Below, piece after piece: positions 1,173 through 27,106 of a stretch of DNA of 27,132 nucleotides. The position numbers were made by a program, and so were the translations under genes. Within the stretch, counting starts at the first letter, position 1. Every line of letters starts with the position of its first letter. The notes below the pieces were generated by a model. The model saw only the letters and a program-made list of their open reading frames with translations, was not told the origin of the DNA and ran no database searches. The DNA comes from a virus, in the IMG/VR virus record IMGVR_UViG_3300050821_001089, positions 1-27,132 of that record; one strand, written 5' to 3'.

Positions 1173-4100
1173 TTAGAATACCTGTGGTGGTTGAACTTGA
1201 CCATTCGTTTGTGTAGCAACTTCAGAAACTGTAACAACACTACTCGCATCATTTGCTATACCAACTCCATTATAAAGATTCATGAAGTCTTCTCTAAATA
1301 GAGGAACTGCATTTTTATAAGTTATACTACAGGTAGCGAATGTTGGGAAAGCATATGGAAGTCTATATTGTTGTAGTAATGGGTCATCTGGAGAACGAGA
1401 CGCAATATCTGCCAAGCTTCCAGGACCACCAAAAGCGGTAGAAGTATTTGTGCTATCAGCAGTTTGGAACTGTTGGACTATTTGGTCTAATGATTGACCA
1501 GCAGCACTATTTATTCCAGCATTTATAAGTTGTCCAAAATTACCATTTGCTTGAAGAGGAGTTCCATCATAATTGTACCACGGTCCATGAAACTCATAGG
1601 TTACATTTTTTATAACTGCTATTGGGAAATAAAATAGACCTGATGCATGACGAACTGAAATATATTCAGGATTTTTCACTATAAAATATCTATAAGGACC
1701 AAATCCACCAGCTTGAGCTGTAGCAGTATCTATAGTTTGTGCTGTTTGTGAGGCTTGGTTTATCAATTGTCCCAAAGATTGAATGGTTTTAGAATCTGAA
1801 GCAGCGGCAGCGGCTCCAAATTGTGCAAGAGATTGTCCAAGATTTCCTGAAGAAGTTCTTGTTGGGTAGCTCAAAGCAGTCAAAAACATCAACGGTCTAA
1901 AAACATCATTCAGGAAATCATCTTTTGTAAATAGAGTAAACTCTGTTGTGATTTCTTGTTTATCAGTAGCAGCATACCTATCAAGTGTGTCCAACTTACG
2001 TGTCATCTTTTGTGGAATTGCTTGAGGACTTCCTTTGTTGATTGAATTGAGAACGGCTCCTCCTAATGTAAATAAAGCATCTGCTCCATTGACCATATCA
2101 AGAACAGAGTTTATAGAAGATGCTATGACATTATCACCAATTCCTTCATAATTGTGGTTATGTGTCATATTCAAGTCCATATTACTTGGATAGATGGTAA
2201 ATGTTCCTAATGAAGTAGTAGTTGTAGGAGGAACAACGTTTTGTATCAGATTAGTATTTCCAACTTGTTTTGCTTGTGGAACTGGTGGAGTATTCTGGAA
2301 AATATTGAAATGAATAGCATGTCTGGCTATTTCATCTGGGTCTTGCTGACCATATGGACTTATTCCATTCCTCATTCTAAAATCGCTAATGGATTGTAGT
2401 GTTGGGAATTGTAAATAAAATGGACCACCGCCAGCTACTCCACTAAATCCAGTACTTGCATTTACATTGCTACCATTGATTGAAGTTGCTGTATTTCCGC
2501 TGTCTATTTGTGATTGTGTCTGTGCTTGTGAAGTTGTATTATTAGTTCCAGCGAGATTATTGGCTGTTACCTGGGCTAATATTTGCTGTGGGTCAACTCC
2601 TGCCGCAGTCTGTGCTGGGTCTACTCCAGCAGCGCCCATTGCTTGAGGACCATTTGGATTCGGGTCACCATCTACATATGATGCATAGTTGATTACTGAT
2701 TGTTGTTGGGCGGCTTGAGCAGTCATCAATGAAGTCTGAGCATTATCAACCAATGTTATATCTTCTGAAGCCCACGTATTTGGATTTGACGGGTCTGGAG
2801 AACCAGCTAAAACGGCATTATTGACAGCATTATTATAAACGGAAGTAAATGTCTGTTGAGCAGAAGCAACATCATCATTCGCATTCTGAAATGTTGCTAA
2901 CAAAGAAGTTGCCGTCTGAACAGTTGCTGGCAAGTTTCCAGCAGAAAGAGCCAAATTGAGCTGCTCATTGCGTGCTTCTACAGACGAGTTATAGACATTA
3001 TAAGCTACTTGGATTTGTGCGTTGTATCCCACAACGGCTGCATTGTATATGTTTTGGTTGGCCTGTTGCTGAGCAACCAATCCAGAGTTTACTATCGTCA
3101 AATTGTTTATAGTTTCTTGGTCAGATGTACTGGCTATTGTAGCATTATTAGCTGCTATTTGCTGAGACAATACAACATTATTCGTAGTCAAAGTTGTCTG
3201 AGCCGCTGTTATAGAAGCTTGTAATTGTCCTATAGTATTATTGAGGATTATCTGATATCCATTGATTGCTACTTGAGCATTCGCTTGTTCTACACTAATC
3301 GGATTCACATTTCTTGAACTAATATAAATGCCACTTTGTATATCTGATTGAGAAATACTTGAAGCAGCAACATAGGTTCCAGTTTTTATATTGTAATAGG
3401 TATTAGGAGGAGCAATCTGTTGACTTGCTGCTATTGCTTGATTTGAGGTAGCATTATTGATAGTATATGGTATGAGAACAGACGCAGCAGCTTGAGAATC
3501 GCCAGTCAAATAAGGAATACTGCCAAATGGATTTACTGCTGGTGCTAACGTTGAAACGACATCTTCAACTGTAACAGCAGATGAATAAGCAACAGAAGGA
3601 GAATCTGGAGAATCTCTAAACCCAAGCATGGTATCTATCAAATCAGTTTTCTCAAGCGTCAAATCATTATAAACAATTTCAGCAGCACTTATCTGGGCAC
3701 TACTACCACTTATTTGAGCAGCATACAGATTATCTGAGGCTATAAGAATGTTAGCATCTATATTATTGAGTTCATCAGAAAGAATAAAAAACGCATTTGG
3801 GTCAAATGGAGTACTTACATGTGTAATGGGAACCGATGTTGACATTGCTGTAACAGCCTGATTGAGGCGTGCTAAAGCAGTTATTTTATCTTCTGGAGTC
3901 TTTGCAGTATAAAAAGCATCTAAGACATTCTTACGCATGACCATATGAGCTTCATCATCAGTTGCAGCATCATAACCATCTTTTTGTATGAGAACACTAT
4001 GGATGAATGAGCGGACATCTTGAGAAAAGATATCATTGGTTGGTGATGAAACAGCGGTCGTAGCAGCTATACTTTGATTCAGAGACGTTTGAGTTTGTGT

Positions 4101-4613
4101 CAAATCGTCAAATAACGTCTGAGTAGCAGCAAGTTCTTGAGTAGCAGCATTCAATATCTGTGTCTTTGTTGGATTGGTGTCTGGTAACGAAGCCGCATTG
4201 ACGACTGCTTGAGTATTTACTGATAGTGCCGTTCCAACTTGAAGAATATTAGAAGTCACAACTCCTTGTGCTGAAATAAGTTGTGTCAAAGATGTTGGAG
4301 GCAATAATGAAGCTTCGTATTGAACCGTATTAGGAACTTGAATTTCGTTGGCCCATGGAGTTGCCACAAACCCACTTGTATTAATCAAAGCAGAATTATA
4401 TATTAGAGGGCTAATTTGATTAGAAATAAGATACAAATTGGCACTATCTATAATAAACTGTTCGTTTTTAATATTCATTTTGATTCCAAGACGAATAGAG
4501 TATGTTGGATCATTCGTGTTATTATACGTAGCGAATTGATTCTCAAGACCAAATCTTGATATAAATGCTGTCACTAACTGGGTTTGTGCGTCTAAAGTAC
4601 TTAAAAATGTCAT
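1173..4613 (-). CDS. gp48/gp54-like tail tube initiator with a very long N-terminal extension
   Basis: The protein has 1146 aa, about three times T4 gp48 or gp54. Roughly residues 730-1146 resemble that family, which caps the baseplate hub and nucleates tube polymerisation: PFYLQFPTLQSISDFRMRNG near 730, a helical TEFTLFTKDDFLNDVF block near 890, and the C-terminal beta part with FYFPIAVIKNVTYEFHGPWY near 1000 and FATCSITYKNAVPLFREDF near 1095. Residues 1-100 form a polar globular start. Residues about 110-720 are rich in Ala, Gln, Asn, Thr and Ser, with heptad-like helical stretches (for example QASITAAQTTLTTNNVVLSQ) and no cysteine. The ATG overlaps the preceding stop by one base (TAATG). 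It sits directly after the tape-measure genes, as 48 and 54 follow 29 in T4. The extension's role is unknown; it might form a rod or fill tail space. Confidence 0.65.
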   Translation of the reverse strand: MTFLSTLDAQTQLVTAFISRFGLENQFATYNNTNDPTYSIRLGIKMNIKNEQFIIDSANLYLISNQISPLIYNSALINTSGFVATPWANEIQVPNTVQYEASLLPPTSLTQLISAQGVVTSNILQVGTALSVNTQAVVNAASLPDTNPTKTQILNAATQELAATQTLFDDLTQTQTSLNQSIAATTAVSSPTNDIFSQDVRSFIHSVLIQKDGYDAATDDEAHMVMRKNVLDAFYTAKTPEDKITALARLNQAVTAMSTSVPITHVSTPFDPNAFFILSDELNNIDANILIASDNLYAAQISGSSAQISAAEIVYNDLTLEKTDLIDTMLGFRDSPDSPSVAYSSAVTVEDVVSTLAPAVNPFGSIPYLTGDSQAAASVLIPYTINNATSNQAIAASQQIAPPNTYYNIKTGTYVAASSISQSDIQSGIYISSRNVNPISVEQANAQVAINGYQIILNNTIGQLQASITAAQTTLTTNNVVLSQQIAANNATIASTSDQETINNLTIVNSGLVAQQQANQNIYNAAVVGYNAQIQVAYNVYNSSVEARNEQLNLALSAGNLPATVQTATSLLATFQNANDDVASAQQTFTSVYNNAVNNAVLAGSPDPSNPNTWASEDITLVDNAQTSLMTAQAAQQQSVINYASYVDGDPNPNGPQAMGAAGVDPAQTAAGVDPQQILAQVTANNLAGTNNTTSQAQTQSQIDSGNTATSINGSNVNASTGFSGVAGGGPFYLQFPTLQSISDFRMRNGISPYGQQDPDEIARHAIHFNIFQNTPPVPQAKQVGNTNLIQNVVPPTTTTSLGTFTIYPSNMDLNMTHNHNYEGIGDNVIASSINSVLDMVNGADALFTLGGAVLNSINKGSPQAIPQKMTRKLDTLDRYAATDKQEITTEFTLFTKDDFLNDVFRPLMFLTALSYPTRTSSGNLGQSLAQFGAAAAASDSKTIQSLGQLINQASQTAQTIDTATAQAGGFGPYRYFIVKNPEYISVRHASGLFYFPIAVIKNVTYEFHGPWYNYDGTPLQANGNFGQLINAGINSAAGQSLDQIVQQFQTADSTNTSTAFGGPGSLADIASRSPDDPLLQQYRLPYAFPTFATCSITYKNAVPLFREDFMNLYNGVGIANDASSVVTVSEVATQTNGQVQPPQVF

Positions 4614-7120
4614 TATTTGTTACCTAATAATCCTTTAGAAAGCTGACGCATCGTATATAACTCGTGTGACTCCATGTTATTAGAAGATTCCTCTATTATA
4701 GTTATATTATTTGTAATATCTTTTTGTTTTTTAATTTCGTCGTCTGGAAGCCTAATATCCTTTATTTTGCTTCTAATATAGTCTCTACCAATAGAATCTA
4801 GGGGAAGGATGTTTTTAGCCGCTGGAGGAACTATGCCACCCATAGCAAAATGGTGCTCTGAAAGAGAAATGTCTATATCTGCTGTTTCGGTAGAAGGTGA
4901 TTGTGGGCCTGGGGACGGAGCCGCTAACGCGGGGAAAGGAATATTAGATTGATTGTTTGTTATTGATGAAGAAGTACCCGGTGCAGATGCACTCCCATAA
5001 AGAAGTCTTCCTACTCCAGTTGATGATAACTTATTATATACGGTAGCATCTAAAGCATCAGCTTTGCCTTTATAGTACGACAATGCTGTACTAGTTTTGT
5101 CTGCTAAAACTCCTGCTATAATTCCAGTATCTCTAGCATATGGCTTAGAAAAATCCCATAAAGTCCCAATATCTAAAGACCACGCATCTAACGTACGAGA
5201 AACAATAGATTGAGACCTTTTTATAGATTCTGCGTCTTGAGCTTCTATATTTGTAGCAATATTTCGTAAAGTAGCATCTTGAAGTTGTATCTTTTTTTCA
5301 TTTTCAATAAGTTCATCAAATTGTGCGGGAGTGGGAATATTAGATGTCGGCATAGCCTGTTTATCTAATAAAATACCAGATTTCAATAGTTTTTCTATAA
5401 ACTCTTTATCTTTCGCATTATTGGCATCTAATAAACCACTACGAGTCAACTTCAGTTTAGCTTCTAATTCATCTACATATTTTACTCGTGCTAAAATGTT
5501 CTCATCAGAAAAACCACCTTCTCCTTTTTTGATGTTGGCAATAACTTGATTTTTGATATTTTCTACAGCATCAGTAGATAGTCCACCAAAGGCGCCTGTT
5601 TGTAAAGTGTCTATATTTTTATTGACAAGGGCATTGAAATCCTTTTCGTTGAGATTTTTTGGAATAGAAATAAGAGCATTTTGGAGAGTTTCCTGGAATC
5701 CAAGAACTTTTTCATCTTGGATTTTTTTACGTAACTGGTCATTTATCCCACTAGCAAAAGCAAATCCAAACTTGCTCGTCAAATAAGATATAACAAAACC
5801 AGTTCCTGGTATGTGGTTTAGAATATCAACATATTTTTCTACAAGAGTTTTTTTAGATACCGAAGAAAAAAATGATATAACTTTATTATATTCATCTTCA
5901 ACCCAACTAACAATTGGTGTCAAATTAGTCTTTATCCAATTATAACTCGTGTTTATCCATGAAAAGGCAGCACGAACATGTTCATGAGTTCCCCACCATG
6001 ATTCAATACTATCACTTATAGACTTATATGCTTTATCAATGGTCGGCTTGAGCCACGTAGATGATTCGTATTCGTTCTTCAACCAACCAAACATTCCACT
6101 AACACCACTCCATATCCAACTACCAACAGATTCGACGACATTCATAGCACCAGCGAAAGCTCCTTCAACAAGAACTAAAGATGCGACTCCAGCCGTGAGT
6201 AAAAGTGTTATTGCCGAAACTATTGCGAAACACAAAACTAAAAACAGAGGAATGTTTACAATCCACATACTTGGAGAAAATATAGTATTAGATAATAACT
6301 TGAACCACCAACCGAAAAATGCTTTTGTTCCATAAGCTAAATATTGAACCGCCTTAGATACTATTGTAAATCCAACCTTGAAGATTGTTGAAAATCCTTT
6401 CCAGACGTATAAAATAGCATCAATTCCAGTTTTTACGAACCATTTGACAACTTTTGTGGCAGAGGATACAACTCCTTTGATTGCTCTCCATATAGGACCA
6501 GTGAGTTTAGTCAATAAAGAATCAACAATTCCCCATGCTAACTTGAATGGTCCAAACAAAAACTTTGATACACAATGAATGGCATTTGACGCAAACTCTA
6601 ATCCAATAGATAAAAATCTTTTAGAAAAATCATAAGCAGAACCCATTTTATCTGTTATCCAAGTAGACGCCTTTCCTACATTAGAAAACAATGGCTTCAC
6701 CAAATAATATAATTTATCTTCATTTTTTGCTGAACTAAACTCTACCACATATTTGTTCATGGAATCAGTCAGAGCCTTGAATACTTTAGATGCTGCCTTT
6801 TTATAAACCGAAACGTCTGTTTTTAGCGAACTAATATGTTTTTCTAAATCTTTATTTTTCTTATTAGTTTCTTCTGTTAGTTTTTCAATGATACTTTTTA
6901 TTTTTTTATTATTAGTTTTCTGAGAATCAGTAATAAAAGTCGTTGTTTTATAAACTTTTTCTATATGCGAATCTAATGTCTGAACACGTTCTTGTTCGTT
7001 TTCTAACAATTCTTCAATTTTATCAGTATCATTTGTTTTATTAACTGGTTGTTTTCTAGCAGCACTAAGCTTCTTGAAAAAATCATCAGGTTGTATAGGA
7101 GGTAGTTGAATATTAGGCAT
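4613..7120 (-). CDS. second tape-measure-like protein
   Basis: An 835-aa protein with the layout of a tail tape-measure protein. Residues 30-130 are charged and coiled-coil-like. Residues 165-330 are amphipathic and hydrophobic helices ending in a strongly apolar segment at about 286-328. A long helical region follows, then a polar linker rich in Ser, Pro and Asn near 710-750. Near residue 761 it has GGIV, the start of the motif that usually closes tape-measure proteins, but the rest of that motif has degenerated. The last residues (LYTMRQLSKG) match the end of the neighbouring 803-aa protein (LYDMKNLSTG), and both N-termini share a P-x-D-x-F-x-K-L pattern. The ATG is 2 nt after the upstream stop; TTGGAG lies 11 nt before it. 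The family sets tail length and is ejected with DNA. This copy could be a partner or hub protein instead of the true ruler. Confidence 0.65.
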   Translation of the reverse strand: MPNIQLPPIQPDDFFKKLSAARKQPVNKTNDTDKIEELLENEQERVQTLDSHIEKVYKTTTFITDSQKTNNKKIKSIIEKLTEETNKKNKDLEKHISSLKTDVSVYKKAASKVFKALTDSMNKYVVEFSSAKNEDKLYYLVKPLFSNVGKASTWITDKMGSAYDFSKRFLSIGLEFASNAIHCVSKFLFGPFKLAWGIVDSLLTKLTGPIWRAIKGVVSSATKVVKWFVKTGIDAILYVWKGFSTIFKVGFTIVSKAVQYLAYGTKAFFGWWFKLLSNTIFSPSMWIVNIPLFLVLCFAIVSAITLLLTAGVASLVLVEGAFAGAMNVVESVGSWIWSGVSGMFGWLKNEYESSTWLKPTIDKAYKSISDSIESWWGTHEHVRAAFSWINTSYNWIKTNLTPIVSWVEDEYNKVISFFSSVSKKTLVEKYVDILNHIPGTGFVISYLTSKFGFAFASGINDQLRKKIQDEKVLGFQETLQNALISIPKNLNEKDFNALVNKNIDTLQTGAFGGLSTDAVENIKNQVIANIKKGEGGFSDENILARVKYVDELEAKLKLTRSGLLDANNAKDKEFIEKLLKSGILLDKQAMPTSNIPTPAQFDELIENEKKIQLQDATLRNIATNIEAQDAESIKRSQSIVSRTLDAWSLDIGTLWDFSKPYARDTGIIAGVLADKTSTALSYYKGKADALDATVYNKLSSTGVGRLLYGSASAPGTSSSITNNQSNIPFPALAAPSPGPQSPSTETADIDISLSEHHFAMGGIVPPAAKNILPLDSIGRDYIRSKIKDIRLPDDEIKKQKDITNNITIIEESSNNMESHELYTMRQLSKGLLGNK

Positions 7121-13448: not shown

Positions 13449-15248
13449 CTAAAAATCTTTATCTTTATTTTTCTTTTTTAAGGCTTGGCGCTTTTCGTCT
13501 AATTCAAGCCAATTATCACCATGAAGGTCTTCATCTCTTTCTAAAAAGGCATCATAGGCAGCTTCTACATCGGGATCGCTAATAGCTTCTTCCTCAAGAG
13601 GAGCATCATAAGTAACTCCTAATTGAAGTTCTGGAGGCTCTAATTTTACTTGAGGAGCCTTTTTAGGCTTGTTGATGTTCCATGTATCTCGAACATCCTC
13701 AAAGAAACGCGATTTTAGAAAATGAGCAGCCCAAATACAGGTTATAACACAGTCGTCGTGGTTGTTTCTACCGCCCTTGGCTTTATAAACTCCAGGAGAT
13801 ACTTCTTCGAAATAACCTAATTGGTCTATTGTTTGAGAATCTCTAATTATAAGACGTTCCTGTTCTAGTTCTTCCTTGAACCAGACACATGCTTGTGGTT
13901 TACTTACTTTATCTGAGCAAATGCCATAAGCGTCATCTTCATAATCAAAATAAATGTTTTCATATTCTTTTTCATCAAATAAACGAGTGAGAACTTCATT
14001 GCTCAATCCATTTGTCTCTCCAATGAGATAAGCATTATTCCAATATGACAAAGTATCATGAATAAAATCTGTAAACATTGGAGGAGTAACATCGTTCCTA
14101 GCCCAAATAGCAACTTGTTCAGCCGGTTTATGTGGATAGAAAGTAATATCAAAAACATTCATAACTGAAAAATCAGAACCCACTCCACCTGAAGTATCTA
14201 TACTAACAAGATACTTGTGTCCAGGCTGGGGTTGTTTCCATAATTTTGAGTAATCATCAGGTTTTAGAACTGGTTCTTCCCACTTCAATTTTTTGATAAT
14301 AAAATTTGCATCAATCAGTGTAACAGATGAACCGACAAATTGGCAACCGAATTCTTGGTTGAATTTTATAACTGATCCTAAATCCCTAATAGTTCTTTCT
14401 TTCCATTTTTCGTCACGTTCTGGAACTTCTGACCATTTGACTTCAACATGATGAAAATTATTCGTTCCATCTATAGAATCTTTCCACAATTTGTAAAACT
14501 CATTTGCTGTTCCATTGGGAGTTGAAACTACTATACATGAACCACCAGTAGAAATAGTTGGATAATTAGCAGTCCAAAACTCTTCAGCAATATTTTGTGG
14601 GACGTGGCTGTACTCGTCGCAGAATAAACATGAAACGCTCTCGCCACGTAGAGCGTCGGCTGATGTTGCTTTCGCAAAAATAGTACATCCATTCTCAAAT
14701 TTCACATTGAAGGCATTATATTCTACAACTCCAGATTTGATATGAAGTGGCAAATATTCATACGCATATTTTATTTCAGCTAAAATACCTTTCGCAGTAT
14801 CGGCTTTGTTAGCTAAGACTGCTATCGTTTTATCCTTATTGAACATAGCAAACCACAAAAGATATATTGCTGAAGTGGTTGTATTATGACTCACGAAACC
14901 ATTAGAATAAAACTCGTGTTCGTCTGAATCAACTTCAACATCATACATATTCTCTGCTGGAACATCTAATTTCTTTATTTCAATACACTTGAAATAACCA
15001 TCGTCAGTTTCTATAGGCATTCCAACCGTTATATCTTGTAAATAAATAGATGTATGATTTTTGGTATATAGAATATGGGTATCTGCGCCCTTCAAGTCAT
15101 CACCGTTTTCAAGCTTTATATACCAAACATCGTAAGGAATAGTCTTGAAAACTTTTGTAATTGGCTTCCAGCCTTGAGGAGTTTTTATGCTAAATCTATT
15201 TGGTTTTATTATTACAGTTTTCTCAAATTTACGCAATGGCTGGAGCAT
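13449..15248 (-). CDS. terL: large terminase subunit, C-terminal part fused to a C-intein
   Basis: 599 aa. Residues 1-122 are a C-intein: block B-like G-A-D-T-H-I-L at about 54-60, block F-like YDVEVDSDEHEFYSNG, and block G F-V-S-H-N ending at 122. Residue 123 is Thr, the +1 splice nucleophile. Residues 123-599 are the gp17-type terminase after the Walker A Lys: TTTSAIYLLW, Walker B LFCDE (D211, E212), coupling motif STPNG (242-246), and nuclease residues D351 in SIDTSGG, E411 in LIGET and D498-D499 in NHDD. All catalytic positions seem intact. After trans-splicing with the 84-residue N-extein the enzyme would have 561 aa (T4 gp17: 610). An in-frame TAG lies 12 nt before the ATG at 15248, so no earlier start exists; AGAGG lies between them. 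The gene overlaps the endonuclease gene by 20 nt. Confidence 0.95.
   Translation of the reverse strand: MLQPLRKFEKTVIIKPNRFSIKTPQGWKPITKVFKTIPYDVWYIKLENGDDLKGADTHILYTKNHTSIYLQDITVGMPIETDDGYFKCIEIKKLDVPAENMYDVEVDSDEHEFYSNGFVSHNTTTSAIYLLWFAMFNKDKTIAVLANKADTAKGILAEIKYAYEYLPLHIKSGVVEYNAFNVKFENGCTIFAKATSADALRGESVSCLFCDEYSHVPQNIAEEFWTANYPTISTGGSCIVVSTPNGTANEFYKLWKDSIDGTNNFHHVEVKWSEVPERDEKWKERTIRDLGSVIKFNQEFGCQFVGSSVTLIDANFIIKKLKWEEPVLKPDDYSKLWKQPQPGHKYLVSIDTSGGVGSDFSVMNVFDITFYPHKPAEQVAIWARNDVTPPMFTDFIHDTLSYWNNAYLIGETNGLSNEVLTRLFDEKEYENIYFDYEDDAYGICSDKVSKPQACVWFKEELEQERLIIRDSQTIDQLGYFEEVSPGVYKAKGGRNNHDDCVITCIWAAHFLKSRFFEDVRDTWNINKPKKAPQVKLEPPELQLGVTYDAPLEEEAISDPDVEAAYDAFLERDEDLHGDNWLELDEKRQALKKKNKDKDF
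14883..15248 (-). other. C-terminal half of the split TerL intein
   Basis: Codons 1-122 of the C-terminal terminase gene. The segment has the Hint-fold order SIKTPQGWKPITKVFKT, WYIKLENGDDL, the A-D-T-H block B, QDITVGM, then the HEFYSNGFVSHN end with penultimate His and terminal Asn. At 122 residues it is much longer than the 35-45 of a usual C-intein, so block B sits in the C-part, as in the AceL-TerL type of atypically split intein. Splice junction Asn122/Thr123 is at 14883/14882. Confidence 0.9.
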
Positions 15249-16365
15249 TCTTTTTAGCCTCTAATAATTGTAATATTTCATTATAAAAATCATTTATTGC
15301 TTTAGTTTTATCAGCATTGAAATCTTTTTCTTTTATATGTCGGATAGTAAGTTTAGGATTACAAATTAGTATATTCTTTTCTCGTTCATCATAATGAGCC
15401 TGTCTCCCACGTTGTACTCCATGCCAAAAATCGCCATCAAACTCTATAATATATTCTATATCTTTTACATAAAAATCAAACAAATAAACTTTTTGATTTT
15501 CGTCTATCATACAGAATTCGTGATTCTTATTACTTTTGTCAATTGTTTCTATTGGTCTTTTCATAAGTTGAGCAAAATAAATATCTGGTAAAGTATTTAC
15601 ATCGGTAAACTTATTATAAATGCCTATAAAAAGTTCTTGAGATATTTTAGAAAATCCTCCGCCACTCCATAATTTTGCTTTAGCAATTCTTTCCAGTTCT
15701 TCGGGGCTTTTGTTTTTTAGAGTTTTTTGCCATTTATCTTGTCTCTCTTGCCATATTTTTGTACCTTCAGCTTCGCCGTGTTTTTCAATACATATTTTTA
15801 GTGAAAATGTTTGTTGACGTTCGTGAACCAGTTGCACTGCTTCTTCTTCGGTTTTTCCTTTATTTATCCAATATTGTGTGTGTACTGGACTTAGTTCAAA
15901 GTTTGGATCGTCTTCTTTTTTCTTTTCTCTAGTCTTTAAGGATTTATCTACTCTAGTAGTATGCTCATTGTACCATTTTGTTCCACATGGAAAACTACAG
16001 AATTTGTCATAAACAATTCCTAATCCCTTGAAAGGCAAATCAACTTTACAAGACATACATTTACCTGTTGGATTTTCCATAGGAATATATTTGTGAGCAT
16101 ATTCTATTATTGTAATTTCTTTGTGTTTTTTCTTTACATGTTTAGCCAAGGTTCCCTTACTAAAACATTTTTCATGACAAATACCACAAAAAATATCTTC
16201 TTTTATTTTTTTAGGTTTATTGTTGTCTTCTGATGCTTTATAATTATGATCGCGTTCTCTATGTTTGGCGAGCGAAACCTCAATGTTATATTCTTTTCCA
16301 CAATCTGGGCAAGAAAAAACTTCTATTGGCTTAATAATCAGTTTTCCATCAAGATACAGATCCAT
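15229..16365 (-). CDS. zinc-finger Vsr-like homing endonuclease between the TerL halves
   Basis: 378 aa. Two C2H2-like fingers (C19, C22, H35, H40 and C60, C63, H76, H81) and one C4 site (C103, C106, C123, C127) form a DNA-binding front. Residues about 160-215 are helical and include KHGEAEGTKIWQERQDKW, a module also found as repeats in the endonuclease at 20746-21651. The C-terminal third is a Vsr/EDxHD-type nuclease: VYLFDFYV (D297), then YIIEFDGDFWHG (E308, D310, H315) and a late IRHIKEKDF strand. GGAGG precedes the ATG. It starts 23 nt after the N-half stop and overlaps the C-half by 20 nt. A gene for this enzyme class between split-intein halves is the known fractured-gene arrangement; the likely target is an unsplit terL allele. 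The target site cannot be deduced here. Confidence 0.85.
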   Translation of the reverse strand: MDLYLDGKLIIKPIEVFSCPDCGKEYNIEVSLAKHRERDHNYKASEDNNKPKKIKEDIFCGICHEKCFSKGTLAKHVKKKHKEITIIEYAHKYIPMENPTGKCMSCKVDLPFKGLGIVYDKFCSFPCGTKWYNEHTTRVDKSLKTREKKKEDDPNFELSPVHTQYWINKGKTEEEAVQLVHERQQTFSLKICIEKHGEAEGTKIWQERQDKWQKTLKNKSPEELERIAKAKLWSGGGFSKISQELFIGIYNKFTDVNTLPDIYFAQLMKRPIETIDKSNKNHEFCMIDENQKVYLFDFYVKDIEYIIEFDGDFWHGVQRGRQAHYDEREKNILICNPKLTIRHIKEKDFNADKTKAINDFYNEILQLLEAKKNAPAIA

Positions 16366-16388
16366 ATAACTACCTCCAATAAATGAAG

Positions 16389-16751
16389 TTATTTCATATC
16401 TTCATTATATAGTAAATCAAATAAATGTCCAATAGTAATTTCTTGTTCTTCTCCAGTTTCATTATCTTTGATAGTTATTAGAGTATCAAAACTCTGGCAC
16501 TTACCCGATTGCCTACTCGAAAGTACTATTACCTTAGTATTTGATTCAAATGCTGATAATAATTTTTTCTGATAATCTCTTAGCTTTATAAGTTGTGCGC
16601 CAGTTTTTGCGTGAATGATACGATAGAAGTTCTCAGCGAAATAAATTACCGAATTAGCGCTTTGAGCATATTCAGATATCATTTTTGTATCATATTCTAT
16701 TTTTAGTCCAGGACGTTTTATATGTCCATGGTCATCATATTTGATTGGCAT
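16389..16751 (-). CDS. terL: large terminase subunit, N-terminal part fused to an N-intein
   Basis: 120 aa. Residues 1-84 match the start of gp17-type ATPases: SVIYFAENFYRIIHA, then LIKLRDYQKKLL (Q-motif region), and VIVLSSRQSGK, the Walker A loop ending exactly at Lys84. Residues 85-120 begin with Cys85 and form an intein block A (CQSFDTLITI) plus a short helix (IGHLFDLLYNEDMK). The TAA follows at once. Splicing to the C-part would restore S-R-Q-S-G-K-T-T-T. ATG at 16751 overlaps the small-subunit gene by 17 nt and has GAAGGA about 8 nt before it. Alone this piece cannot bind or hydrolyse ATP, so DNA packaging depends on trans-splicing. A simple sequencing error is excluded by the intact intein ends and the full gene in between. 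Confidence 0.95.
   Translation of the reverse strand: MPIKYDDHGHIKRPGLKIEYDTKMISEYAQSANSVIYFAENFYRIIHAKTGAQLIKLRDYQKKLLSAFESNTKVIVLSSRQSGKCQSFDTLITIKDNETGEEQEITIGHLFDLLYNEDMK
16392..16499 (-). other. N-terminal half of the split TerL intein
   Basis: Codons 85-120 of the N-terminal terminase gene. It starts with the catalytic Cys (TGC at 16499-16497) and block A, and stops after 36 residues, before where block B would be. Typical split inteins have N-parts of about 90-120 residues; the AceL-TerL N-part is about 25. The break is therefore of the rare early type. Confidence 0.9.
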
Positions 16752-17355
16752 CTGTGTTTCCTTCTATTGTTATAGTTTTATTTTCTATGGGAGGTTCTAT
16801 AGCTGCTGGAGCGTTACCATCTGGAATAACTTTTTTAGTTATAAGAAGATCCATCAAGTCGCTTGTAGTCCCAAACATCATGACATTATTCGTCACAGTT
16901 CCTTGGGGCGCTCCAGCAGACTGTTTCTTCACATCTATTTTTTGTTGTTCTAATCCTAGTTTAGCCTGAGATACTTTTATGTTGTTTATGTTGTCTATGA
17001 TTGAGTTTATAGATGTTATCATAGCTGCGGCAGTTTCGACATCTCTACCAGTTGGATTGTCTTCTATTTCGTGTTGTAAGGAGTCTAACATGACCATACC
17101 TTTGCCAACAAGCTCTTTCAAGATGTTGCTCATGTATTCATCAACATTCGTCATTGATTGGATCTCGGCAAAGCGTCTCTTAAAGTCTTCTATTTGCTTC
17201 TTTCGCGCTTCCATTTCCATAAGTTCTTTTTCTGCGGCTGCTTCATCAAAGCCATCAGAACCATCCATTTTTAGTAAATCGGCAATGTTCTTGAATGATT
17301 TACCTTTTGTTGGCTGATTGTTGGAGTCTTGTGGCTGCTGATTATTGGTGGACAT
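16735..17355 (-). CDS. terS: gp16-like terminase small subunit
   Basis: 206 aa. The N-terminal 60 residues are polar and then charged. Residues about 50-150 form long helices suited to the oligomeric coiled-coil core (TNVDEYMSNILKELVGKGMV, then NNIKVSQAKLGLEQQKIDVK). Residues near 157-170 read VTNNVMMFGTTSDLMDLL, closely parallel to the T4 gp16 motif with V-F-M-G-S-P-T-E-L-M-D. The C-terminus is acidic and Pro-rich. TerS forms a ring, recognises concatemeric DNA and stimulates the TerL ATPase. It directly precedes terL with a 17-nt overlap, the T4 16-17 order. It is somewhat longer than gp16 (164 aa). ATG at 17355 follows AAGAGG. Confidence 0.88.
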   Translation of the reverse strand: MSTNNQQPQDSNNQPTKGKSFKNIADLLKMDGSDGFDEAAAEKELMEMEARKKQIEDFKRRFAEIQSMTNVDEYMSNILKELVGKGMVMLDSLQHEIEDNPTGRDVETAAAMITSINSIIDNINNIKVSQAKLGLEQQKIDVKKQSAGAPQGTVTNNVMMFGTTSDLMDLLITKKVIPDGNAPAAIEPPIENKTITIEGNTDANQI

Positions 17356-20188: not shown

Positions 20189-20743
20189 ATGGAAGGATAT
20201 ATTTATGTTTTAACGAGTCCAAGCGGCAAACATTATGTAGGTCAAACTTGGAATATAGCTATGAGATGGAATTGTTATATGAAATTATACACTAAACAGC
20301 AACGCAAATTAGACAGAGCATTAAGAAAATATGGACCCGAAAACTTTATATTTTATATTATTGATGCGGCTAAAACACAAGAAGTTTTAGATAAAAAAGA
20401 AATATATTGGATTGGCTCATATGATGCGGTTAATAATGGCTATAATATAGAAGAAGGAGGGCGTTTTTGTAAAACAACAAATCCCAGAAATGAAGAACTA
20501 AACTTTACTGTAGATACTGACGAAAAAGCAAAAATAGAATATCGTGCTCAATTATTTGGGTTCAAGAACGTCAGTGATTATATCCGTTTTGTTTCTATGA
20601 ATTCATTTTTGATGGCTGGAATTGATACAGTCAACATGAATGGAGAAACGAACCAATCGGTTCAACAGAAAAAAGAAATTGAAGACTTATTAGCAAAGAC
20701 AATGAAAACTGTCCAGAATTATTTCAATAAAGAAGAGAAATAA
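20189..20743 (+). CDS. GIY-YIG homing endonuclease
   Basis: 184 aa. Residues 1-92 form the GIY-YIG nuclease: YIYVLTS (4-10), HYVGQT with YVG at 16-18, a conserved Arg at 26, the metal-binding Glu at 71 (KKEIYWIGSYDA) and Asn at 86 (GYNIEEGG). Residues about 104-140 look like a ribbon-helix-helix DNA-binding unit: a strand NFTVD, a helix KIEYRAQLFGF, a turn, then SDYIRFVSM. The rest is a polar helical tail. It lies on the strand opposite to the structural genes, between gp13-like and gp14-like, with a 2-nt gap to the next endonuclease gene. AAGG precedes the ATG. It is likely a free-standing mobile gene; no intron boundary was seen near it. Confidence 0.92.
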   Translation: MEGYIYVLTSPSGKHYVGQTWNIAMRWNCYMKLYTKQQRKLDRALRKYGPENFIFYIIDAAKTQEVLDKKEIYWIGSYDAVNNGYNIEEGGRFCKTTNPRNEELNFTVDTDEKAKIEYRAQLFGFKNVSDYIRFVSMNSFLMAGIDTVNMNGETNQSVQQKKEIEDLLAKTMKTVQNYFNKEEK

Positions 20744-20745
20744 AG

Positions 20746-21651
20746 ATGAAAAATAAAACTAAACTACCGCCTATACCAACAGAGAAGACGTGTCCAATTT
20801 GTGGAACAATATTTTATAGGAGAGAAAGTGAGAAATCAACAGATTGGAGAGCAAGAGCAACATGCTCTAAAAAATGTGGACACAAAGCAATCTCAAAAAA
20901 GAAAAAGGGCTGGAAAGGCTATTTCCAGTGGTTATTAGAACACGAAGGACCAGAAGCAGTTGCTGCTTATAAAGAAAAGAGAAAGAAGACTTATAAAACT
21001 ACATACCAGAGACTTATAGATAAGTATGGTCCGAAACGCGCTCCTGCGGAATTTGAGAAATATAAAAAGAGAATGTCAAAAAGAAATAAAGGTCAAAAAT
21101 GTCAATATGATTTATTAGTTGCCAAATATGGTGAAGAAGAGGCTACTAAAAGATATAATAAAACCAGAAAGAAAATATCAAAAATTGTTAAAAAGAGAGG
21201 GAAAAACGTTAAAAGATTATTATATGAAAAATATGGAGAAAAAGAAGGAGAACGCCGTTATAAAGCAATGAGAAAGAAAATGTCTATCAAAAAGAAACAA
21301 TATCTAAAAGATAATCCTGACAAAATTCCGTATCTATTATATAATTCTTCTAAAATGAGTTATCCTGAAAAGATAATGTACGAAGTTCTAACTAAAGCAA
21401 ATATACAATTTCATTATAATTATCCGATTGGTGGATATGCCTACGATTTTGCTATTATCAACAAAAAGATAGATATTGAAGTTGATGGGGCTTTACATCT
21501 GCGTTCGGATATAGCCAAACGAGATAAAATTAGAGATAAATATACAAAATCAATTGGATGGAAAGTTCTGAGATTTACGGCTAAAGAAGTAATGTATGAT
21601 ACAGAAAACGTACTAAAACGCATAAAATTGTTTATCAAAAGAAAGTTATAA
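20746..21651 (+). CDS. Vsr/DUF559-like endonuclease with zinc site and internal repeats
   Basis: 301 aa and strongly basic. Residues 16-44 contain a C4 zinc site (C16, C19, C40, C44). Residues 64-182 hold four related helical units centred on E-G or Y-G (about 67, 94, 128 and 163), with the pattern KYGxxxxxxxYxxxRKKxS, for example KYGEKEGERRYKAMRKKMS. Residues 205-290 are a PD-(D/E)XK-type nuclease of the Vsr/DUF559 kind: YPEKIMYEVL, YAYDFAI (D234), KIDIEVDGALH (E245, D247, H251), and VLRFTAKEV. The gene follows the GIY-YIG gene by 2 nt, with the stop TAA two bases before ATG, so the two are co-translated. The repeat unit is also seen in the endonuclease inside the terminase. Homing activity is inferred; no target or accessory gene is visible. 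Confidence 0.82.
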   Translation: MKNKTKLPPIPTEKTCPICGTIFYRRESEKSTDWRARATCSKKCGHKAISKKKKGWKGYFQWLLEHEGPEAVAAYKEKRKKTYKTTYQRLIDKYGPKRAPAEFEKYKKRMSKRNKGQKCQYDLLVAKYGEEEATKRYNKTRKKISKIVKKRGKNVKRLLYEKYGEKEGERRYKAMRKKMSIKKKQYLKDNPDKIPYLLYNSSKMSYPEKIMYEVLTKANIQFHYNYPIGGYAYDFAIINKKIDIEVDGALHLRSDIAKRDKIRDKYTKSIGWKVLRFTAKEVMYDTENVLKRIKLFIKRKL

Positions 21652-23531: not shown

Positions 23532-26324
23532 TTAGAATATTCGCACAGCATAGATAGACCCTTGCCATGCATCGGCGCCGCCAATTTCATGCCACATAAT
23601 AAAGGCCATAAGATACAGTGTTGTATTAGTCGTACAGTTGAAATTGACAGTTGGTGTGGTCAGTGTAGGTTGTATTACATCACTTGATTTATTTGTCGAA
23701 AACCAACATGCGGTTGCCCCTATTCCAAAGAGACTTCCACCAAAGCCACCGACTAGTGTTCCATTTGCTGGAGTTGAAGAAGTAGAAACCTCTATTCCAC
23801 ATCCTGATACGTTTGCGGTTGAAGATGGTGGAATCAGCCACAAGCCAGGACATGCAGCAGCAGAAACTAACCAATATCCTGGTGTAAGAGTAATTGAACA
23901 TATTTGACTATAAACACCTTGACTGCCATAAGAAACACCAGTGCCATAATTTGCTATTACTTCACCAACCTGACCAGCAGATGCGCCTACTGTTCCAGTT
24001 TGATTTCCCCAAATAACATTGCCTTGGAATGTTGATGTAGGTTTAGTTAGGCCACCAGCATATAGACAATCATTATTAGATGTTGGAGTGAGAACAAGTG
24101 CTCCTGCTGGAGAAACTTGAATGTTAGGTGCCGATGAAATGGAAACTGTAGTACCATAAAGAACTTGGCTTGATGGAGCATTTGTAAGTCCAGCACCAGA
24201 ATATCCGCTAACTCCTGAATAACCACTAAAACCGCTGAAACCTGAATATCCAATAGAAGTATACCATTGCGACCCATCCCATTGTAATGAGGATATAGCA
24301 TATTGCCCAGACAATGTTTGCGTTGAAGTGCCGTTTATAGTGTGCGTTGCTCCACCAGAAATAGTTATAGTATTTACTGATACTTTCTTGTATATCTCGT
24401 AAGTCTGTCCAAAGTTTGGCGTAGCAGGTAAATTGAATATAAGATTGCCTGATGTGCTATCACCAACAATGACCATATCAGTCGTAGCCAATGTATAGTT
24501 AGCCGTCTTGGTTTGTGGCGTAAGTTCAAGCGAGCCTATTTGAGCGTTAGACGCCGAAATTACCGATGTCCAAGTGTTGTTAGCTAAAAGATATGACGGA
24601 GGATTACCGCTAATTTGGAAGACAGTAGGAGCATTCACTACACCTGCCGCCGAGGCTGAGAAGGTTTGGATTTGTTGCCAGGCTCCAGACGCAGCAAGGA
24701 ACATATCAGCAAAACCATCACCAATGGCTGGAGCTGGAACGAGTCCTGCCATTGGGGTTTCAATATTGTATAACTGGAAATATTGGACGAAGATTTTTAC
24801 GCTTGGGTTGAGTTGAAATCTGTAATACCTATATCCAGTGGTATTTGAGAAAGTTGAAGTCATATTGACGGTTGTTGGAAGCGACGTTGGAGGGTAAATC
24901 ACCGTTATGCCTGTTTGTATGGTTGTGTAAGTCACATTGTCATGTGAGCCATCTACTTCCCACACGCCTGTAACTGTTAGGGCTCCATTGTTATAATTTC
25001 CAGCACGTGACACGAATTGGTCACATACTACGTTTGCTCCACTACCAAAATCAACTATGAATTGCCCGAGCGAACTTCCACCTTCATCGGTTGATGTATT
25101 CACATTATCAAATAAGTGCCAAGGATTTGGAAAGTTTGTTCCCGCTATGATATCATATGGACTTGGTGTAGTCGCTGATGTCATAACTGGAACAAGACCA
25201 ATTGGAGCACTTCCGTTAGTATCACCAACAAAGTTTGGAATAGTGGACCATTGACCGTCAGCATTTAGAAAATAATTTCCAGCAGATATTTCCGCTACAG
25301 TCGCAGCAGGAACTGAACCACTTATGCTATAATACCATTGTGTTCCATCCCATTGAAGCGACGTTGAATTGTATTGGTTATTCAGAGTAACTGAAGATAA
25401 TCCACTGATAGTCTGTAGATTTCCTGCTGAAATTGTAATTGAGTTTGTGAGACTCTTTTTATATATTTCGTAGGTTTGACCGTAATTCGGAACTAATGGA
25501 AGGTTAAAGGTTATATTTCCATTGGTGCTATCACCAACAATAACCATATCAGTTGTGAGAATATTATAATTAGTAGTCTTTGTCTGAGTACCATATTCAA
25601 GAGAACCAATCTGAACATTATTTGCCGATATATTATTAGACCATATACCATTAGATTGTAAATAATACGGAGAGCCAGAAGTTTGTGCTGTTGTTGGTCC
25701 TGGAACAGCGCCTGAAATATTTACAGAAAAGAGGTTGGCGCTTCCGCCAGAACCAGAGAATCCTGATATACCCTGGCTGCCGCTAAATCCTGACACGCCA
25801 CTGAAACCTGAGAATCCGCTCGTTCCACTAACTCCATTACTTCCTGTTCCTCCTGAATATCCAGATACCCCGCTAAATCCAGAAGTACCACTTACTCCGT
25901 TAGAACCAGTTCCTCCAGAAACACCACTGAAACCTGAGAATCCAGACGTTCCAGAAACACCATTGCTTCCTATAGTTCCATTTGTTCCAGAGAATCCACT
26001 AAAGCCTGATATACCAGAGGTTCCAGAATAACCAGAGAATCCTGAAGTTCCACTAAAACCACTTACTCCACTAAAGCCAGAAAATCCAGATATTCCTTGA
26101 CTACCAGTCGCTCCACTAAAGCCAGAATATCCACTAAATCCTGATGCTCCTGCTCCTCCAGCAGAACCAGAAAGAGCGATCTGTGAAACACTTCCCGCTC
26201 CATTCAATAGATATAAATTGCCGTCATTTTTATAATATAAAATAACTTCGCTGGTTAATGGAGGAGTATTTGGAGTTGAACTCATTCCATTGAAGATAAC
26301 GCCACCATCATTGAAACCAGCCAT
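23532..26324 (-). CDS. collagen-like tail fibre or adhesin with discoidin-like domain
   Basis: 930 aa from ATG 26324, which has AGAGGG five bases upstream; a GTG at 26330 lies inside that ribosome site and is less likely. An N-terminal 50 residues (LTSEVILYYKNDGNLYLLNG) resemble fibre attachment ends. Residues about 55-195 are Gly-x-Ser/Thr triplets without proline, probably a trimeric triple helix. Two duplicated 120-residue units follow (about 215-334 and 571-691), each with TTDMVIVGDST, GQTYEIYKK and SLQWDG. Between them, about 391-521, is an F5/8-type C (discoidin/CBM32) fold: PWHLFDN, GQFIVDFGSG, GVWEVDGSHDNVTY, GYRYYRFQL, a likely sugar binder. A second short collagen patch is near 692-710. 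The last 170 residues are a beta-rich tip (PGYWLVSAA, TNTTLYLMAF). Receptor binding is the inferred role. Confidence 0.85.
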   Translation of the reverse strand: MAGFNDGGVIFNGMSSTPNTPPLTSEVILYYKNDGNLYLLNGAGSVSQIALSGSAGGAGASGFSGYSGFSGATGSQGISGFSGFSGVSGFSGTSGFSGYSGTSGISGFSGFSGTNGTIGSNGVSGTSGFSGFSGVSGGTGSNGVSGTSGFSGVSGYSGGTGSNGVSGTSGFSGFSGVSGFSGSQGISGFSGSGGSANLFSVNISGAVPGPTTAQTSGSPYYLQSNGIWSNNISANNVQIGSLEYGTQTKTTNYNILTTDMVIVGDSTNGNITFNLPLVPNYGQTYEIYKKSLTNSITISAGNLQTISGLSSVTLNNQYNSTSLQWDGTQWYYSISGSVPAATVAEISAGNYFLNADGQWSTIPNFVGDTNGSAPIGLVPVMTSATTPSPYDIIAGTNFPNPWHLFDNVNTSTDEGGSSLGQFIVDFGSGANVVCDQFVSRAGNYNNGALTVTGVWEVDGSHDNVTYTTIQTGITVIYPPTSLPTTVNMTSTFSNTTGYRYYRFQLNPSVKIFVQYFQLYNIETPMAGLVPAPAIGDGFADMFLAASGAWQQIQTFSASAAGVVNAPTVFQISGNPPSYLLANNTWTSVISASNAQIGSLELTPQTKTANYTLATTDMVIVGDSTSGNLIFNLPATPNFGQTYEIYKKVSVNTITISGGATHTINGTSTQTLSGQYAISSLQWDGSQWYTSIGYSGFSGFSGYSGVSGYSGAGLTNAPSSQVLYGTTVSISSAPNIQVSPAGALVLTPTSNNDCLYAGGLTKPTSTFQGNVIWGNQTGTVGASAGQVGEVIANYGTGVSYGSQGVYSQICSITLTPGYWLVSAAACPGLWLIPPSSTANVSGCGIEVSTSSTPANGTLVGGFGGSLFGIGATACWFSTNKSSDVIQPTLTTPTVNFNCTTNTTLYLMAFIMWHEIGGADAWQGSIYAVRIF
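24252..24614 (-). repeat. second copy of the duplicated fibre unit
   Basis: This encodes a 121-residue copy containing L-L-A-N-N-T-W, TTDMVIVGDSTSGN, GQTYEIYKK, TITISGG and SLQWDGSQW. It matches 25323-25682 residue for residue at many positions in the protein. The stretch with a nucleotide-level match is shorter. Confidence 0.8.
25323..25682 (-). repeat. first copy of the duplicated fibre unit
   Basis: This encodes the 120-residue partner of 24252-24614 (QSNGIW, TTDMVIVGDSTNGN, GQTYEIYKK, SITISAG, SLQWDGTQW). The two copies flank the discoidin-like domain, which may therefore have been inserted into, or captured between, duplicated units. Confidence 0.8.
25740..26162 (-). repeat. collagen-like coding repeat
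   Basis: About 47 Gly-x-y triplets, mainly GFS, GVS, GTS and GYS. A larger 20-22-residue unit with TGSNGVSGTSGFSG and a S-G-V-S-G or similar end occurs three times in tandem with small changes. There is no proline, unlike vertebrate collagen. The near-identical units make length change by slippage or recombination likely. The plus-strand complement is a proline-rich open frame without biological support. Confidence 0.9.
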
Positions 26325-26355
26325 TGACACCCTCTTTTATAAAGTTTTCTAATGG

Positions 26356-26737: not shown

Positions 26738-27106
26738 ATGTTTTTATCTAGGCTTCATGGGCTTATTAGAGAACATATAATAAAACCTTTAACTCGTTCA
26801 GGAAGATGGAGGACAGTTCGTAAAGACTTTTTAGAAGCCCATCCAACATGTGCTGCATGTGGTGGGACCAAGTGGTTGAATGTCCATCATAAAATGCCTT
26901 TCCATGACGAACCAGAAAAAGAATTAGACCCTAATAATCTTATAACATTATGTATGGGTAAAAATGAATGTCATCTCAAAATAGGGCACGGAAACAACTT
27001 CAAGTGCTTCAATGACAAAGTTACGGAGATGGCCAAAGAGGATTTAGAACATCCAGAAAAACGCGGTTTATTAGAAGAACAAGCTAAAGAAAATAAGAAG
27101 TGTTAA
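26738..27106 (+). CDS. HNH endonuclease
   Basis: 122 aa. Residues 20-37 are a basic lead (SGRWRTVRKDFLEAHPT). The HNH fold follows: C38-x2-C41, the VHHKMP segment with H50-H51, N67 in DPNNLITLC, then C72, C78-H79 and H84. The zinc-binding C-x2-C and late Cys/His support an intact beta-beta-alpha-metal nuclease. The tail is charged and helical. GGAGG lies about 10 nt before the ATG. It follows the 110-aa gene by 6 nt. In phages such short HNH proteins are either homing nucleases or packaging partners; here, away from the terminase and next to other mobile nucleases, a homing role is more likely. The end at 27106 is complete; the last 26 bases of the window hold no visible feature. Confidence 0.88.
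   Translation: MFLSRLHGLIREHIIKPLTRSGRWRTVRKDFLEAHPTCAACGGTKWLNVHHKMPFHDEPEKELDPNNLITLCMGKNECHLKIGHGNNFKCFNDKVTEMAKEDLEHPEKRGLLEEQAKENKKC

What the first reader, a model, noticed from the sequence alone, without database searches (positions are those of the whole stretch)
13449..16751. Terminase split by an atypically divided intein with an endonuclease gene between the halves
The N-half ends G-K then Cys85 with a 36-residue N-intein. The C-half starts with a 122-residue C-intein ending in H-N, then Thr and the rest of gp17. The break inside the intein lies far earlier than usual, as in the AceL-TerL type. The intervening gene is a zinc-finger Vsr-like endonuclease. This agrees with the fractured-gene arrangement reported by Dassa and colleagues (2009) for environmental phage sequences, now with full neighbours. 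Seen: intein blocks, splice residues, restored P-loop. Inferred: efficient trans-splicing and homing.
Basis: partly seen in the sequence, partly recalled or inferred. Interest (0 to 1): 0.92.

Follow-up and report, generated by a model that had tools for sequence, protein, structure and literature searches.

The report
Terminase gene split by intein
In this phage the gene for the DNA-packaging motor is cut in two by a parasitic DNA-cutting gene, and the two protein halves almost certainly stitch themselves back together through a split intein; the arrangement is a known kind, but this one belongs to a widespread family that breaks the ATP-binding loop of many unrelated motor proteins.

Summary
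Confirmed. A T4-type large terminase gene (terL) is broken exactly between the Walker A Lys and Thr codons. The N-half (84 aa of terminase) ends in a 36-aa N-intein, the C-half starts with a 122-aa C-intein, and removing both restores a 561-aa TerL. Between them lies a 378-aa zinc-finger, EDxHD (Vsr-like) homing-endonuclease gene. The class 1 splice residues are present, except that block B reads A-D-T-H. A close relative (L002) has the same terL uninterrupted; Ackermannviridae and L043 carry a contiguous intein at the same site; L104 and L105 share the exact fractured layout. So this is a new member of a known kind (Dassa-type fractured gene, AceL/GOS-TerL-like early split), but at another TerL site and with Cys1/Thr+1.

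New here, as far as I could search: the endonuclease family is almost always tied to such split inteins. Of 73 unique loci picked by the endonuclease alone, 68 precede a C-intein, three more do on inspection, two sit beside an intact terL. At least 56 insertions follow a Walker A GK, in terminase, Rad50/gp46-, ClpB- and DnaB-like genes. The nuclease domain is swapped (EDxHD or GIY-YIG). Splicing and homing were not tested.

The parts
16500..16751 (-). terL N-extein (84 aa, ends SRQSGK, Walker A up to Lys)
16389..16499 (-). N-intein, 36 aa, Cys1 (plus stop codon)
   Evidence: aligned to contiguous inteins
16373..16377 (-). GGAGG, likely ribosome-binding site of the endonuclease gene
   Evidence: read from sequence; inference
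15229..16365 (-). zinc-finger EDxHD (Vsr-like) endonuclease gene, 378 aa
15661..15897 (-). conserved central module of the endonuclease family (residues 157-235), shared by EDxHD and GIY-YIG forms; presumably DNA-binding
   Evidence: role inferred
15241..15660 (-). EDxHD nuclease domain (residues 236-375)
14883..15248 (-). C-intein, 122 aa, ends FVSHN; its ATG overlaps the end of the endonuclease gene by 20 bases
13449..14882 (-). terL C-extein (477 aa, starts TTTSAIY) plus stop
16735..17355 (-). terminase small subunit-like gene directly upstream (context)
   Evidence: (phrog_445 E 0.001), homologue at the same place in L002
11396..13354 (-). tail sheath gene directly downstream (context)

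Best explanation
A fractured terL gene. The phage makes TerL as two polypeptides; their intein pieces meet, fold into one Hint domain, cut themselves out and join Lys84 to the following Thr, restoring the Walker A motif and a 561-aa terminase (protein trans-splicing, class 1, Cys1/Thr+1). The gene in between encodes a zinc-finger EDxHD endonuclease which most likely cuts intein-free terL alleles across the GK/T codons in co-infecting phages, so that repair copies intein halves and endonuclease together into the break (homing). Shown: gene layout, splice residues, extein continuity, the fold family of the intein relative and of the nuclease, recurrence, empty and contiguous alleles. Inferred: splicing, cleavage, homing.
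For: Layout, residues and 561-aa product. Extein continuity against T4 gp17. Intein profile hits on VidaL, gp41-1 and Cat; TIGR01443 above cut-off. A contiguous terL intein at the same site (L043, 153 aa) folds as a Hint domain, pLDDT 93, best PDB match VidaL E 3.7e-10, with low confidence only around residues 31-40, where the others are broken. Ackermannviridae carry a contiguous intein at the same site. Empty site in L002, 58% identical C-extein. Same fractured layout in L104 and L105. Endonuclease model matches I-Bth0305I and Vsr. 68 of 73 unique endonuclease loci precede a C-intein. In the TerL tree split, empty and contiguous alleles interleave, 8 changes forced by well-supported branches, L002 (empty) lying inside the window's own clade at 99/94. 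L149 has its halves on opposite strands, which only trans-splicing could join.
Against: No splicing or cleavage was measured. The window's two intein pieces could not be folded together with the tool at hand; the Hint model is of a contiguous relative. Block B has Ala where Thr is usual, three residues before the His; so do all seven aligned relatives, including the contiguous Ackermannviridae inteins. Distances of the endonuclease module and of the C-intein are not correlated (Spearman 0.03 over 87 loci), so the pair does not clearly travel as a fixed unit; the alignments are short and saturated. The endonuclease model is mediocre (pLDDT 65).
Confidence: 0.9

Rival explanations
1. The split is bridged at the RNA level: a group I or II intron with an endonuclease gene inside joins the terL halves before translation.
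For: Such terL introns exist (ICP1 terL is spliced at RNA level and has a T5orf172 endonuclease gene beside it; PMC10448857).
Against: No Rfam intron match in the window or locally at E up to 1; both halves carry intein blocks in register with contiguous inteins; in L149 the halves are on opposite strands.
Confidence: 0.02
2. The split terL is a decayed or misassembled gene and the phage is defective or uses another terminase.
For: Single metagenomic contig, incomplete genome; no reads available here.
Against: All three ORFs are intact, exteins are conserved to the last motif, and the same layout recurs in contigs from other samples and with other host genes.
Confidence: 0.03
3. Trans-splicing is real, but the endonuclease is a passenger or an ordinary free-standing homing gene that does not target the intein site.
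For: Endonuclease and intein distances do not correlate; Cr30 and L012 have the gene next to an intact terL; other nuclease types occupy the same slot.
Against: The association is near-exclusive (68 of 73, plus 3 on inspection), and the sites share one codon context.
Confidence: 0.25
4. The two halves work as separate subunits without being joined.
For: None found; possible in principle.
Against: The break separates the Walker A Lys from its Thr, which must share one loop; splice residues are kept.
Confidence: 0.02

Closest known systems
Fractured genes with split inteins and Vsr-like endonucleases (Dassa et al. 2009, doi 10.1093/nar/gkp095; not held, known from citing papers and memory)
   Same: A host gene broken inside an intein, with a free-standing endonuclease gene of the EDxHD/Vsr-like kind between the halves.
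   Different: Host gene and site (TerL Walker A), early break in the intein, zinc fingers, and here a whole family centred on Walker A sites.
AceL-TerL and GOS-TerL atypically split inteins (Thiel 2014; Bachmann and Mootz 2015; via PMC11766414, PMC13014065)
   Same: TerL of environmental phages; short IntN (25 and 37 aa; here 36) and long IntC (104 and 115; here 122); break after helix 1 (S2).
   Different: They use Cys at +1 (AceL Cys1/Cys+1, GOS Ser1/Cys+1); here Cys1/Thr+1 in the Walker A. L017's third intein, at ...QEFS|C...KN|CKFLGS, with Cys+1 and best PDB match Cat, looks like their site (the AceL site itself is from memory).
VidaL split intein (PDB 6vgv)
   Same: Closest solved structure by profile and by fold; natural, early split.
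   Different: IntN of 16 aa and S1 break (PMC13014065).
TerL1-a inteins of mycobacteriophages (PMC5050341)
   Different: Another terminase family; the word 'split' does not occur in that paper, so they are described as contiguous.
Contiguous TerL intein of Ackermannviridae (Kuja, KpS110, A221)
   Same: Same site GK|TT, 30-33% identical over the intein.
   Different: One uninterrupted gene, no endonuclease gene inside.
I-Bth0305I, EDxHD homing endonuclease (PDB 3r3p)
   Same: Nuclease fold, Z 9.7.
   Different: Treated as a group I intron homing endonuclease (PMC3943268); different DNA-binding part.

Membership tests
Class 1 split intein | Cys or Ser at position 1 with block A | tested here: met
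   Cys85 of the N-half, CQSFDTLITI
Class 1 split intein | Block B T-x-x-H | tested here: inconclusive
   His present and invariant in 8 aligned C-inteins; the Thr position is Ala in all 8 (A-D-x-H)
Class 1 split intein | Block F, block G His-Asn, and Cys/Ser/Thr at +1 | tested here: met
   MYDVEVDSDEHEFYSNGFVSHN|T; TIGR01443 above cut-off
Class 1 split intein | Hint fold formed by the two parts together | tested here: inconclusive
   Contiguous relative L043 folds as Hint; the window pair itself could not be co-folded
Class 1 split intein | Trans-splicing activity | not testable with these tools
   Needs expression of both halves
Atypically (early) split intein, AceL/GOS-TerL-like | Short natural IntN of about 15-37 aa, break after beta 2 or helix 1 | tested here: met
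   36 aa; the break falls after the first helix of the L043 model (helix 23-29, uncertain loop 31-40)
Atypically (early) split intein, AceL/GOS-TerL-like | Cys+1 as in AceL and GOS (same terminase insertion site) | tested here: not met
   Thr+1 in the Walker A; AceL and GOS use Cys+1 (PMC11766414)
Fractured gene (Dassa type) | Host gene in two ORFs, each with an intein part, endonuclease gene between | tested here: met
EDxHD (Vsr-like) homing endonuclease | Vsr/EDxHD nuclease fold | tested here: met
   I-Bth0305I Z 9.7, Vsr Z 7.3 over residues 237-369; model confidence moderate
EDxHD (Vsr-like) homing endonuclease | Cleaves the element-free allele and promotes homing | not testable with these tools
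   Only distributional support
Group I/II intron | Catalytic intron RNA | tested here: not met
   No Rfam match at gathering score in the window or at E up to 1 locally

The most novel reading that the evidence does not exclude
The window is one copy of a single family of mobile gene-breaking elements whose endonuclease recognises the DNA that encodes the Walker A motif (GGN AAR | ACN or TCN), so that it can invade unrelated P-loop NTPases (terminase, Rad50/gp46, ClpB, DnaB-like helicases) and break each at the same catalytic codon, with interchangeable nuclease domains (EDxHD or GIY-YIG) on one shared DNA-binding module.
Probability: 0.35. Interest if true: 0.75.

Novelty: new member of a known kind. 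Interest (0 to 1): 0.5.

Why it matters
It gives the full gene context of a terminase split intein in the Walker A, together with empty, contiguous and fractured alleles at one and the same codon in related phages, so that the path from contiguous intein to fractured gene and the role of the endonuclease can be tested directly. The wider family offers dozens of natural, early-split inteins with short N-parts (mostly 26-55 aa), useful for protein labelling, and cases such as a ClpB in three pieces that ask how two related split inteins avoid mispairing. An essential motor that only works after trans-splicing is also a possible control point in phage assembly.

Tried and rejected
Group I/II intron: no Rfam match. 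Co-inheritance of endonuclease and intein by distance correlation: none seen over all loci (0.03) or TerL only (0.02); an earlier run with wrongly classified host genes was discarded. Host-gene classes by regular expression failed and were replaced by BLAST clustering. Foldseek alone gave only zinc fingers and PvuRts1I at weak E-values for the endonuclease; the second aligner was needed. Genomes of bacteria and archaea: one relative of the endonuclease (Treponema MAG, L184), so it is essentially a phage family. Dassa 2009 and Bachmann 2015 are not held, so whether they already note the Walker A bias could not be checked. My statistic counts N-halves recognised by a Cys after [AGS][KR]; 56 of 57 so recognised were GK, but 16 loci gave no recognised N-half, and L010 (polymerase; gp41), L150 and L181 are inserted elsewhere (in or next to the P-loop for the latter three), so the bias is strong, not absolute.

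Full report
What is there. The minus strand of the window holds, in order, sheath stabiliser, terminase small subunit, terL N-half (16751-16389), endonuclease (16365-15229), terL C-half (15248-13449) and tail sheath. The N-half is 84 aa of TerL ending ...SRQSGK, then Cys and 35 more residues; the C-half is 122 aa ending ...FVSHN, then TTTSAIY and the rest of TerL. T4 gp17 matches the N-half up to its residue 192 and the C-half from its residue 191, so removal of the two intein parts restores an uninterrupted protein of 561 aa with its Walker A motif. The C-half ATG overlaps the end of the endonuclease gene by 20 bases, and the endonuclease gene has a GGAGG seven bases before its ATG, which suggests coupled translation (inference). 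The record is a 27-kb IMG/VR contig.

The intein. A profile of eight C-inteins finds VidaL (5.7e-13), gp41-1 (1.2e-12), Cat, the AceL/GOS-TerL consensus (5e-9), and further inteins. Ackermannviridae terminases (Kuja, KpS110, A221) carry a contiguous intein at exactly this site, 30-33% identical over its length. L043 carries a 153-aa contiguous one, 39-48% identical to the aligned relatives; it folds as a Hint domain with pLDDT 93, closest to VidaL, and its only uncertain stretch (about residues 31-40, after the first helix) is where the window intein is broken. The break thus corresponds to the S2 position of AceL-TerL and GOS-TerL (PMC13014065). Nucleophiles are Cys1/Thr+1; AceL and GOS use Cys+1 (PMC11766414), so the terminase site differs. 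In L017 a third intein at ...QEFS|C...KN|CKFLGS, with Cys+1 and Cat as best match, probably is the AceL/GOS site. Block B has A-D-x-H instead of T-x-x-H in all eight aligned C-inteins.

The endonuclease. C2H2-like fingers, a conserved central module, and a C-terminal domain whose model matches I-Bth0305I (Z 9.7), NGO0050 (9.7), PvuRts1I/AbaSI (7.4-8.1) and Vsr (7.3). The stretch IEFDGD(F/Y)WH is kept in L104 and L105. In L012, L013 and L018 the same central module is joined to a T5orf172/GIY-YIG-like domain instead (L012: PF10544 above cut-off; the others by eye and alignment only).

Other alleles. L002/L003, the former a 262-kb phage contig, have the same neighbourhood and an uninterrupted terL, 58% identical in the C-extein. 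L104 and L105 have the identical three-gene layout (C-intein 63-64%, endonuclease 38-46% identical). In a TerL tree of 61 rows the split, empty and contiguous states interleave; eight changes are forced by well-supported branches; L002 falls inside the window's clade (99/94), L043 inside a clade of split forms (98/92), and the Ackermannviridae beside L013 (100/98). Sampling was by intein and endonuclease, so the counts are not prevalences. Repeated gain and loss is what homing predicts; the direction of each change is not resolved.

The family. Among 73 unique loci chosen by the endonuclease alone, 68 have a C-intein downstream on the same strand. Of the other five, L010's polymerase copy, L149 and L181 prove to be split-intein genes as well. 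Only Cr30 (L020/L138) and L012/L177 are not; in both the endonuclease gene lies directly upstream of an intact terL, as expected of a free-standing homing gene beside its target. In Cr30 the motif reads SAK|S, so the second G of the GG that all 82 invaded sites share is changed; I take this as a hint, no more, that its own site is protected.

Walker A bias. All 82 paired sites found by the GK|C rule continue with Thr or Ser (the rule itself selects GK). In the endonuclease-chosen set, where N-halves were recognised by a Cys after Ala/Gly/Ser plus Lys/Arg, 56 of 57 end in GK. By BLAST clustering of 87 C-exteins from both scans: 53 terminases, 21 Rad50/gp46/SMC-like, 6 ClpB-like, 4 DnaB-like helicases, 3 singles (class names from motifs). 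Pfam supports one example each: AAA_23 (L009), AAA_2 with ClpB_D2-small (L155), DnaB_C and DNA_pol_B (L010), ResIII (L181). P-loop insertion of inteins is well known (PMC5050341); that one endonuclease family is this narrowly tied to it I did not find stated, but key papers were not readable here.

Trans, not cis. In L149 the N-half and endonuclease are on one strand and the C-half on the other, head to head, 132 bases apart. If this is not a misassembly, only protein trans-splicing can join them. L155 breaks one ClpB-like gene into three pieces with two split inteins, one in each Walker A. L017 carries three inteins in terL, two split and one contiguous with LAGLIDADG. L100 keeps the intein frame open through an HNH/NUMOD3 gene read in another frame at the very point where relatives are broken (0 of 20,000 synonymous resamplings keep it open), an alternative to fracture.

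What I believe. The window locus is a working fractured terL with about 0.9 confidence; active homing today is less sure (about 0.65). It is a new member of a known kind; the added value is the complete context, the three allele states at one site, and the Walker A centred family.

Noticed in passing
L149:2112-4034 (-) and 4167-5534 (+): terL N-half plus endonuclease on one strand and terL C-half on the other, head to head: a fractured gene with rearranged halves (single metagenomic contig; the endonuclease frame is broken).
   Followed up: partly
L155:327-7213: ClpB-like gene in three pieces with two related split inteins, one after each Walker A, each with an endonuclease gene between; mispairing would skip or repeat a segment.
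   Followed up: partly
L017:2495-9032 (also L015, L016): terL with three inteins: a split one in the Walker A (endonuclease reduced to a remnant), a contiguous LAGLIDADG one before the TPKG motif, and a split one at QEFS|CKFLGS with two endonuclease genes between.
   Followed up: partly
L100:2427-5357 with 2788-3687: Contiguous 448-aa terL intein whose frame stays open through an HNH/NUMOD3 endonuclease gene read in another frame, placed where relatives are broken.
   Followed up: partly
L002:5818-6477 and L005:742-1407: Directly upstream of an intact terL lies a 219-221 aa degenerate copy of the TerL ATPase domain with a damaged Walker A; function unknown.
   Followed up: no
L127, N-half upstream of 3290: N-half reads GRQQGK|TFTSNTIIRYN: Thr where Cys1 is expected, so splicing there is doubtful or unusual.
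   Followed up: no
L181:4159-6876: Helicase (ResIII, UvsW-like) split by the same endonuclease family (GIY-YIG-like form); C-intein too diverged for my profile; C-extein starts SGKS.
   Followed up: partly
L021:1-1418 (Vibrio phage VmeM-32): uvsX in two pieces with a SegG-like endonuclease gene between and a short C-intein at the start of the second piece.
   Followed up: no
window 20189-21651 (+): Two further endonuclease genes, GIY-YIG then DUF559/MTES_1575, inserted against the direction of the surrounding virion genes.
   Followed up: no
window 26738-27106 (+): HNH endonuclease (PF01844 above cut-off) at the edge of the contig.
   Followed up: no
window 23532-26330 (-): Collagen-like protein with many GFSG/GYSG-type repeats, probably a fibre.
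   Followed up: no
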